Made by a program: the position numbers and the translations under genes. Of a DNA stretch of 64,000 nucleotides, positions 29,601 through 35,422 are shown piece by piece; positions within the stretch are counted from its first letter, which is position 1; every line of letters begins with the position of its first letter. The notes beneath the pieces were generated by a model, which saw only the letters and a list, made by a program, of their open reading frames with translations, ran no database searches and was not told where the DNA came from. Source of the stretch: Imbricaverruca yamaguchii (lineage: Eukaryota; Arthropoda; Thecostraca; Neoverrucidae); the NCBI GenBank assembly GCA_034440575.1, contig JAOTOL010001498.1, positions 872,501 through 936,500 on the forward strand. The letters are read 5' to 3'.

Positions 29601-32600
29601 TTTCCCACGAACCGTCTTGCTTTTAGAGTAGGATGATTGCTACCAGACCGATCGTGCATCCTTTTTTACGAATCTATCGATGCTCTGTTTTATATATCTG
29701 GGTATATTTGGACACGCTGAAGCATACTCGGCTAGCAGCTTTGATCGCAGCTTACGCAAAAAGAGTAAATGCAAAAGCAGCTGTGTTTTCCCCGCTGTTT
29801 ATCAGCTGGACGCGGTAGCTCAGTCGGTAGGGTGTTGTGCTTTTGATCGCGTGATTGTGAGTTCGATTCCTGCAACTGCAACCGGCTGGATTGCCGAGAC
29901 CACCCGCGACCAATCGGCGTAAGAGGTTAGCGACCTTACATGACATACCAGTCGAATGCGTCATGACAGAACCCGAGGTTGTGGGCTGTTTATTAGCTCT
30001 GTTCCATGCGTGGCGGCAGGAGTTCGGAGGGGTCCCTCCGAGGAAATGATCCTCTGCACCCGAGGATATATCTGTTGTCTATCATGACTTCATAGCTCCG
30101 TGACCTGACATGAACTAACTAACCCGGTGCTTGCCAAAAGTCGCAAAAATATTTCATTGGACACACAAACATCTAAGAATCTCCGTGGAGCGCTTCCCAA
30201 AACATCTCCCAAAGACCTCGAAAGCAGTTTTGCGTCAAATTCTGGCACCCAGAAATATTATCGGCCACCTGCTCCCAGGCGGTGTGGGAGGCGCCAGGCC
30301 CCACGCTATGCACGTTAATCTGTATACATTTCATATTCCTAACACCCCTCACAGGTCTGCAGTCACCATGCCGCTTGTTTTCCTTGCTTTTGTTTCTGTT
30401 TTTCTTGTTGTTTTTGTCTTCGATGGTATCATGACTGAGCTGATGTGGTCATATCCTGAGGCTGCCGCCCGTGTTTCCCGCATGTACGGCCGCCAGCCAA
30501 CTGCAGCGGAGCTCACCGGATGCGATAGTATTGTAAACATGTTTTCAGCAGAACCTGAGATGCACGGGGCCAGTGCGGCTGGTCCCACGTGGATGCCATC
30601 GCCACGTGCGACAGAAGTTGATGTCTTGCCGCTGAGTAGCTGGCGCTCGTGTTTTGCTTGCGCTCTGGGTAATTTGTGGAGCATCTGAGATGTGCTCAGC
30701 GCTAATGGGTCGGCGGTGGCCGAGTGCCGCCAGCGTACACGAGAGATATGGTTGGCATGTGAATGTGTATCCAGGGACACCTGTCAGGTCACCATGCCCT
30801 TCCAAGCTGAGGCCAAGATTGCTACGCACTCGCCCTGTTCAATCCCGTGTGGCTTAGCGCGGTTTCTCTGTGTTCAGGTTGTGGAGAAGAAATTCGGTCC
30901 TTTTGCCATGTATTCGAGTGGTAGGCATGGAGCGTCGCCAACCTCCCACGCCGATTGGTCGCGCTTGGACTTGGTAACCCGGCCTGTTGTGGGATTAAAA
31001 TTCATCATATTACCACCAAGAGTCTACCGCAACCCATATTTGTTCTGACGAACACTCTAATATTGCCCATCTAGCACGGGCTTGAATCAATACCATCTCA
31101 TTATAATACTAATTCTTCATATTATATTGCCACAATAATAAAATTGCCACAAAATTGTTTTCTTGTTCAACACTTAGGGTGTCTGACGCCTCAGTTGTCA
31201 GTGGTATTGTCAATGCTGACGACTGGTAACACGGTGTCTAACGCCTCAGTTGTCATTGCTATTGTCAGTGCTAACGACTGGTAACATGGTGTCTGACCCC
31301 TCAGTTGCCAGTGGTGTTGTCAGTGCTGACGACTGGTAACACGGTGTCTAACGCCTCAGCTGTCAGTGGTATTGTCAGTGCTGACTACTGGTAACACGGT
31401 GTGTGCCGCCTCAGTTGTCAGTGGTAGTGTCAGTGCTGGCGGCTGATAACACGGTGTCTGACGCCTCAGCTGTCAGTGGTATTGTCAGTGCTGACGACTG
31501 GTAACACGGTGTCTGACCCCTCAGTTGTCAGTCGTAGTGTCAGTGCCGGTGGCTGGTAACACGGTGTCTGACACCTCAGCTGTCAGTGGTATTGTCAGTG
31601 CCGGTGGCTGGTAACACGGTGTCTAACGCCTCAGCTGTCAGTGGTATTGTCAGTGCTGACGACTGGCAATATGGTGTCTGACCCCTCAGTTGTCAGTGGT
31701 AGTGTCAGTGCCGGCAGCTGGTAACACGGTGTGTGTCGCCGTAGTTGTCAGTGCTATTGTCAGTGCTGACGACTGGTAACATGGTGTCTGACCCCTCAGT
31801 TGTCAGTGGTATTGTCAGTGCTGGCGGCTGGTAACACGTTGTGTGTCGCCGTAGTTGTCAGTGGTATTGTGAGTGCTGGCGGCTGGTAACACGTTGTGTG
31901 TCGCCGTAGTTGTCAGTGGTATTGTGAGTGCTGACGACTGGTAACACGTTGTCTGACGCCTCAGTTGTCAGTGGTATTGTGAGTGCTGACGACTGGTAAT
32001 ATGTTGTCTGACCCCTCAGTTGTCAGTGGTATTGTCAGTGCTGACGACTGGTAACATGGTGTCTGACCCCTCAGTTGTCAGTGGTAGTGTCAGTGCTGGC
32101 GGCTGGTAACACGGTGTGTGTCGCCGTAGTTGTCAGTGGCAATCTCAGTGCAGGCGGCTGGTAACCTGGTAACACGGTGTCTGACGCCACAGAGTGGTAA
32201 GCCGGCAACGCCGCTGTTCCCCGGCGGCTGGTAACCTGGTAACACGGTGTCTGACGTCACAGAGCTGGCTAACGCCGGCCGGCCGCTGTTCCCCGGCGGC
32301 TGGTAACCTGGTAACACGGTGTCTGACGTCACAGAGCTGGCTAACGCCGGCCGGCCGCTGTTCCACGGCGGCTGGTAACCTGGTAACACACTGTCTGATG
32401 TCACAGAGCTGGCTAACGCCGGCCGGCCGCTGTTCCCCGGCGCCGACGTCGATGACCAGTTGAAGCGCATCTTCAAGCTGCTGGGCACTCCCACCGAAGA
32501 AACGTGGCCGGGCATCGGCGCACTGCCCGAGTACAAGCCGTTCCCGCTGTACCAGCCGACAATGCCACTCTCCCAGGTGGTGCCCAAGCTCAACAGCAAG

Positions 32601-35422: not shown

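What the first reader, a model, noticed from the sequence alone, without database searches (positions are those of the whole stretch)
32600..33390. Cdk5 exon 6 donor repeated about 25 times at 31-bp spacing, each a back-to-back acceptor/donor
Seen: the real junction CTGCTGCAG|GTACGT is the first of about 25 near-identical junctions. Each unit ends in a C-rich tract plus CTGCAG and is followed at once by GTACGT. Known: a juxtaposed AG|GT with a pyrimidine tract is the form of a recursive (ratchet) splice site. Inference: the array could act as a run of ratchet points, a donor sink, or a source of transcripts carrying 31 x n extra bases. An essential kinase tolerating this implies that the first donor is favoured or that extra units are removed again.
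Basis: partly seen in the sequence, partly recalled or inferred. Interest (0 to 1): 0.88.

Follow-up and report, generated by a model that had tools for sequence, protein, structure and literature searches.

The report
Exon walled in by splice-site copies
In the Cdk5 gene of what is most likely a barnacle, one exon is followed by 24 tandem copies of its own splice donor and preceded by 20 acceptor-like copies; the splicing machinery likely uses the innermost pair and discards the rest, which resembles a donor repeat reported in the human IFI6 gene but lies on both sides of the exon of a conserved kinase.

Summary
A complete Cdk5 gene (7 coding exons, 296 aa, 83.5% identical to human; closest protein found: Pollicipes pollicipes) holds a 31-bp minisatellite that starts inside exon 6. 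CAG|GTACGT at 32618 is followed by 24 more AG|GT junctions to 33363, then donor-less AG|GC copies. Of 26 plus-strand CAG|GTRNGT sites in 64 kb, 25 are in this array. The ratchet reading is not supported: 0 of 24 downstream units has a TNAY motif 14-50 nt before its AG, against 6 of 6 real acceptors and 21 of 21 upstream modules; spacing is 31 nt in a 2.7-kb intron. Best reading: minisatellites grown outward from both edges of exon 6, tolerated because splicing likely uses the innermost sites, with possible leak into the next donors. The donor side has a precedent, the human IFI6 minisatellite. No RNA data were available, so donor use is untested.

The parts
1517..5653 (+). Cdk5 coding exons 1-4 (1517-1553, 4005-4093, 4589-4782, 5566-5653)
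   Evidence: tblastn with human CDK5; splice model gives an 891-nt ORF of 296 aa
27020..27191 (+). Cdk5 coding exon 5, upstream partner of exon 6
31178..32165 (+). 55-bp tandem array, 18 copies by TRF; the 17 modules listed each carry a TNAY branchpoint-like motif and an AG (acceptor-like module)
   Evidence: TRF; 17 modules listed (the first TRF copy was not listed); TNAY 14-50 nt upstream of AG in all 17 (part of 21 of 21)
32153..32442 (+). 72-bp tandem array, 4.1 copies, copying the end of intron 5 plus the first 36 nt of exon 6; its last copy is the real acceptor (AG at 32406)
   Evidence: TRF; the copy at 32263 equals the first 36 nt of exon 6, the copy at 32335 differs from them at 1 position, the copy at 32193 is diverged and matches for only 2 nt
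32407..32618 (+). Cdk5 coding exon 6 (212 nt), flanked by repeat arrays on both sides
   Evidence: PDB match to human CDK5 residues 196-264
32609..33363 (+). 31-bp minisatellite, GT-type part: the real donor at 32618 plus 24 further AG|GT junctions; first unit includes the last 10 nt of exon 6
33364..33611 (+). distal, diverged copies with AG|GC (junctions 33390, 33422, 33453, 33484, 33515, 33611): no donor GT; several contain TGA
35324..35422 (+). Cdk5 last coding exon (exon 7), acceptor for intron 6

Best explanation
Exon 6 of this Cdk5 gene is flanked by tandem repeats that carry 24 further copies of its donor after it and 20 acceptor-like modules before it (3 that copy its own edge, 17 looser ones), and the spliceosome likely uses the innermost acceptor and the first donor while the rest is discarded with the introns. 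Shown by sequence: the 31-bp units share the last 10 nt of exon 6 plus the intron start; the 72-bp units copy the intron end plus up to 36 nt of exon start; downstream units carry a donor with the same computed U1 pairing as the real one but no TNAY motif; upstream modules carry TNAY plus AG. Inferred: the repeats grew outward from the exon edges by slippage or unequal exchange, because extra copies there fall into intron and leave the coding edge intact. Inferred: exon context or position lets the first donor win over 24 equal ones, with some leak into the next donors, most of which would shift the frame (17 of 24 extra donors do).
For: Complete gene with intact ORF; the P. pollicipes protein has the same LLQ|RLL junction. 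Of 12 splice junctions in the gene only two, both of exon 6, have near-copies (at least 19 of 24 nt, + strand) elsewhere in the window: donor 6 has 24, acceptor 6 has 2. Computed U1 duplex energy is -9.8 for 23 of 25 junctions, the real donor included, and -10.2 for 2; of 2,397 GT dinucleotides in the gene span 32 reach -9.8, 25 of them in the array. Random placement of 8 merged arrays, allowed to overlap exons by at most 40 bp, put arrays over both edges of one exon in 0.000365 of 200,000 trials. TNAY: 0 of 24 downstream, 21 of 21 upstream (real one included), 6 of 6 real acceptors. Exon 6 protein is identical in P. pollicipes, 0 of 71 residues different. 7 of 24 extra donors keep the frame. 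No protein matched the array-encoded peptide at E <= 0.001 among the 7,997 candidates scored. Precedent: for human IFI6 a passage reports two downstream repeat units used as donors, three mRNA species and one predominant protein form (PMC4526556).
Against: No RNA evidence at all. The first donor is not distinguished by its 9-mer, and predicted RNA accessibility does not single it out (rank 25, 6 and 11 of 25 for three window settings), so why it should win is unproven; for equal competing donors a downstream one can win (recalled). Without the 40-bp limit on exon overlap the placement simulation gives 0.25, not 0.0004, because long arrays may then swallow whole exons. The window was chosen for this oddity, so any P value is post hoc. 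Copies in an array are not independent, so the 0-of-24 and 21-of-21 counts are close to one observation each. The 17 modules of the 55-bp array do not contain exon sequence, so their descent from the exon 6 acceptor is an inference from the shared core.
Confidence: 0.62

Rival explanations
1. Used donor ladder. Several of the first repeat donors are used at real levels and donor choice (or copy number between individuals) sets the ratio of normal to altered Cdk5: +31 and +62 would be frame-shifted, +93 would insert 31 residues after LLQ.
For: All 25 donors have about equal computed U1 pairing; the coding frame stays open through the array to 33432; IFI6 uses two downstream repeat donors (passage); predicted products are 372, 293 and 327 aa for the next three donors.
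Against: 17 of 24 extra donors break the frame of a conserved kinase; no array-encoded peptide among the 7,997 database candidates scored (which could not see unannotated isoforms); the P. pollicipes model joins LLQ to RLL directly, in a species whose intron I could not see. A stop-free 31-mer is ordinary: 56% of shuffles are stop-free.
Confidence: 0.2
2. Ratchet or dual-specific use. Array AG|GT sites act as both 3' and 5' splice sites, so intron 6 is removed stepwise or the array collapses by internal splicing.
For: AG|GT at every one of 25 junctions; tandem dual-specific sites are used in human UBC, even with a very weak 3' score (PMC10809524, results and discussion). Pyrimidine content of the units (0.65-0.71) is not below that of acceptors 4-7, and a looser TNAN motif (TCAG) is present in 14 of 24.
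Against: 0 of 24 units have TNAY 14-50 nt upstream of AG, against 383 of 567 CAGs elsewhere in the gene span; only 2-4 T in the 17 nt before the AG and no unit reaches 0.75 pyrimidine; 31-nt steps in a 2.7-kb intron. The fly study read in passages found no AGGT-to-AGGT junctions, but it looked only at segments of 1 kb or more, so that is no test of 31-nt steps.
Confidence: 0.06
3. Unrelated intronic minisatellites that happen to touch the exon. The genome is repeat-rich and the two flanking arrays arose independently of the splice sites.
For: 55 TRF rows in 64 kb; the arrays used in the simulation cover about 9% of the gene span.
Against: The 72-bp and 31-bp units contain exon 6 sequence (36 and 10 nt); restricted placement 0.000365.
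Confidence: 0.07
4. Assembly artefact: copy number inflated or mis-joined.
For: No reads could be checked; the search of the own genome did not complete.
Against: The 24 copies fall into 11 unit types in irregular order; flanks and ORF are intact. Exact copy number may still be wrong.
Confidence: 0.05

Closest known systems
[quoted passage not shown] 1995; title and a citing passage seen; paper itself not held)
   Same: A minisatellite supplies repeated splice donors; two downstream repeat units serve as donors there.
   Different: Unit here is 31 bp, not a multiple of 3 (the IFI6 unit is 12 bp and starts at the exon end, recalled); host gene is a conserved kinase; acceptor-side arrays flank the same exon; use of the extra donors is untested here.
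Dual-specific splice sites in tandem repeats, e.g. human UBC (PMC10809524; abstract, results and discussion read)
   Same: AG|GT repeated in register with a tandem repeat.
   Different: UBC units are coding, 228 nt, in frame and used as both site types; here units are intronic, 31 nt, and lack a TNAY motif.
Intron gain by tandem duplication across an intron-exon boundary (potato RdRp, PMC4974935; abstract and results read)
   Same: The 72-bp repeats also duplicate intron end plus exon start, with branchpoint-like motif and AG included.
   Different: No new intron or exon is shown; upstream copies would end in a stop if used as exon starts.
Recursive (ratchet) splice sites of Drosophila (PMC8605326, two sections; PMC6110457, passages)
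   Same: Juxtaposed AG|GT.
   Different: Spacing, intron length and the missing TNAY motif do not fit.

Membership tests
IFI6-type donor minisatellite | tandem repeat that starts at an exon end and repeats the splice donor | tested here: met
   25 AG|GT junctions from 32618; first unit shares 10 nt with exon 6
IFI6-type donor minisatellite | more than one repeat donor used in mRNA | not testable with these tools
   no RNA data for this species
[quoted passage not shown]
   AG|GT present in 25 of 25; pyrimidine content 0.65-0.71 is like acceptors 4-7 (0.59-0.65) but T-poor
Recursive (ratchet) splice site | a branchpoint upstream of each AG | tested here: not met
   TNAY 14-50 nt upstream: 0 of 24 units; 6 of 6 real acceptors. 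Looser TNAN: 14 of 24, all TCAG
Recursive (ratchet) splice site | very long intron, segments above about 1 kb | tested here: not met
   intron 6 is 2,705 bp, steps of 31 bp; criterion from PMC6110457
Dual-specific splice sites in a tandem repeat (UBC-like) | same AG|GT used as donor and as acceptor | not testable with these tools
   needs junction reads; the sequence argues against the acceptor half
Tandem-duplication intron gain | duplication spanning an exon-intron boundary | tested here: met
   72-bp and 31-bp units contain exon 6 sequence
Tandem-duplication intron gain | a new spliced intron absent from relatives | not tested

The most novel reading that the evidence does not exclude
Exon 6 is a splice-site-array exon: a bank of acceptors on one side and a bank of donors on the other act together as landing pads that define the exon, and donor slippage into units 2-4 makes a ladder of altered Cdk5 whose dose changes with repeat number between individuals, so a minisatellite tunes an essential kinase through splicing.
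Probability: 0.12. Interest if true: 0.8.

Novelty: new variant of a known kind. Interest (0 to 1): 0.5.

Why it matters
It is a natural test of donor choice: 25 donors with about the same computed U1 pairing lie in a row behind one exon of a conserved gene, so which one is used would show how far position and exon context outrank the site itself. The two-sided layout also suggests a general way introns could grow: tandem duplication at an exon edge leaves an intact splice site at that edge, so it may be tolerated where insertions elsewhere are not. That makes a prediction for other repeat-rich genomes: minisatellites rooted in exon edges, acceptor-only upstream and donor-only downstream.

Tried and rejected
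Idea that RNA folding opens only the first donor: rejected, accessibility does not single it out. Idea that donor letters are specially conserved among units: 2 deviations in 216 cells of the donor 9-mer against 27 in 528 elsewhere (Fisher P 0.006), but 4 of 31 circular 9-column windows, its own included, do as well, so not claimed. Recent local homogenisation: neighbouring units are no more alike than shuffled ones (1.96 against 2.03 differences, P 0.34). Hairpin-driven slippage: the single 31-bp unit does not fold better than shuffles as DNA (z 0.27), two units do (z -2.25), 55- and 72-bp units do not (z -0.19, -0.72); weak. Stop-free array as a sign of coding: ordinary, 56% of shuffles. Exon 7 divergence from P. 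pollicipes as a sign of frame trouble: rejected, exon 7 is also the most variable exon per residue in the 5 of 6 pairs among the four other proteins that differ by more than two residues.

Other genes beside arrays: of 349 ORFs of 70 aa or more, 32 passed a composition filter and 10 of these went to Pfam, with no match; the 69-aa exon 6 piece also gave no Pfam match. tRNA and Rfam scans found nothing. In the placement simulation I used nine TRF arrays (merged to eight) and left out six rows of period 10 or more with at most 2.4 copies, and the short-period simple repeats. Papers: a search for fly ratchet points found none; a later one did. From a search on donor competition I opened one paper, and its passages do not settle which of two equal donors wins. 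Searches looked for splice-site repeats; from their listings I opened the potato and UBC papers and four papers that cite or touch the IFI6 work; the other listed papers were not opened. Barnacle genome papers PMC8416341 and PMC8917513 were seen in passages, PMC8270832 in its abstract; they say nothing on this locus in what I saw.

Full report
What the window is. tblastn with human CDK5 finds seven pieces in order on the plus strand. Splice sites placed by hand give exons 1517-1553, 4005-4093, 4589-4782, 5566-5653, 27020-27191, 32407-32618 and 35324-35422, an 891-nt frame without internal stop, 296 aa, 83.5% identical to human CDK5 over 291 residues. The best of the 120 proteins listed is cyclin-dependent-like kinase 5 of Pollicipes pollicipes, 98% identical; the next named ones, of decapods and insects, are at 86-89%. 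The window protein and the Pollicipes one differ at 7 of 296 compared residues, 6 of them in exon 7. The source is therefore most likely a barnacle, but not that sequence itself; the species is not proven. A 516-aa frame elsewhere in the window also matches a barnacle protein, of Amphibalanus amphitrite.

The donor array. The exon 6 end CTGCTGCAG|GTACGT is followed by 24 more AG|GT junctions, the last at 33363, spaced 31 bp with one step of 32. TRF gives 32609-33516, 29.4 copies, 91% matches. The first unit shares the last 10 nt of the exon. 23 of 25 junctions read GTACGT and 2 read GTATGT. Beyond 33363 the copies read AG|GC and several contain TGA. CAGGTRNGT has 27 matches in the window, 25 in the array; shuffles average 4.54 with a maximum of 10. 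Computed pairing with the U1 5' end (recalled sequence) is -9.8 kcal/mol for the real donor and for 22 of the 24 copies, -10.2 for the other two; the AG|GC copies fall to -4.5 to -5.5. So the real donor has no advantage in its own letters.

The exon 6 acceptor (AG at 32406) is the last of four 72-bp repeats (32153-32442). The copy at 32263 equals the first 36 nt of exon 6, the copy at 32335 differs at one position, and the copy at 32193 is diverged. The copies switch from exon sequence to repeat at GGCG, which the exon and the 55-bp array also share, as expected if the duplication used a 4-nt microhomology (inference). Before this lies an 18-copy 55-bp array (31178-32165) with the same core, an AG preceded by TAAC or TGAC. 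In all, 21 acceptor-like modules were listed: 17 in the 55-bp array, 3 in the 72-bp array and the real one; the first TRF copy of the 55-bp array was not listed.

Is it more than chance? Of 12 splice junctions in the gene, 24-nt probes find near-copies (19 of 24 or better, plus strand) only for acceptor 6 (2) and donor 6 (24). Placing eight merged arrays at random with at most 40 bp of exon overlap covers both edges of one exon in 0.000365 of 200,000 trials; without that limit the figure is 0.25, because a long array may cover a whole exon. The test is post hoc.

Ratchet or not. For an AG|GT to act as an acceptor it needs a branchpoint. A TNAY motif with its A 14-50 nt upstream of AG is present at 6 of 6 real acceptors, 21 of 21 upstream modules (the real acceptor 6 is in both counts) and 383 of 567 CAGs elsewhere in the gene span, but at 0 of 24 downstream units. 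Copies are not independent, so this is in effect one unit type that lacks the motif. The looser TNAN is present in 14 of 24, always as TCAG, so a weak branchpoint is not excluded. Pyrimidine content of the downstream units (0.65-0.71) is not lower than at acceptors 4-7 (0.59-0.65), but they hold only 2-4 T in 17 nt. Recursive splicing in flies is reported only for the longest introns, with segments nearly all above 1 kb; that study found no AGGT-to-AGGT junctions but searched only segments of 1 kb or more (PMC6110457, passages; PMC8605326, introduction and one discussion section). Intron 6 is 2,705 bp. I therefore do not file this as ratchet splicing. The layout is instead polar: acceptor-like copies before the exon, donor copies without that motif after it.

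What use of the extra sites would do. Donor 2 would give 372 aa, donor 3 293 aa, donor 4 327 aa with 31 inserted residues. 7 of the 24 extra donors keep the frame. Use of the 72-bp acceptor copies as exon starts would end at 195 or 207 aa. No protein matches the array-encoded peptide at E <= 0.001 among the 7,997 candidates scored. The P. pollicipes model joins LLQ to RLL directly, but its intron was not seen.

Why the first donor should win is open. Predicted accessibility does not single it out: its rank is 25, 6 and 11 of 25 under three settings. Exon context is the remaining candidate (inference). The nearest precedent is human IFI6, where a passage reports three mRNA species through use of two downstream repeat units as donors while one protein form predominates (PMC4526556; the original paper, Turri et al. 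1995, is not held). UBC shows tandem dual-specific sites in use (PMC10809524, abstract, results and discussion), and a potato gene shows duplication across an intron-exon boundary (PMC4974935, abstract and results).

Verdict. The array is real and larger than reported, because it has a second side. The mechanism I commit to is outward growth of minisatellites from both edges of exon 6, with the innermost sites likely used. The donor side is like IFI6; the two-sided layout in a conserved kinase makes it a new variant. I saw no two-sided case in the listings of searches, most of whose papers I did not open, in a library that lacks most subscription journals.

Noticed in passing
window 62254-63801 (+): A 516-aa open frame with very high third-position GC (0.94) matches an uncharacterised Amphibalanus amphitrite protein (59% identity over 94%) and two unnamed proteins; no Pfam match. 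It looks like a protein of narrow distribution encoded in one long exon.
   Followed up: partly
window 56561-58274: A 44-bp tandem array of 39 copies at 94% matches, the longest in the window; no gene context sought.
   Followed up: no
window 33364-33611: The distal copies of the 31-bp repeat have AG|GC instead of AG|GT and several contain TGA, so donor-bearing copies form one uninterrupted block next to the exon. Whether this is older sequence or a selected boundary is open.
   Followed up: partly
window 15647-15882 and 19857-19973: Two 59-bp arrays in intron 4 whose consensus units look by eye like reverse complements of each other, possibly the ends of one inverted element.
   Followed up: no
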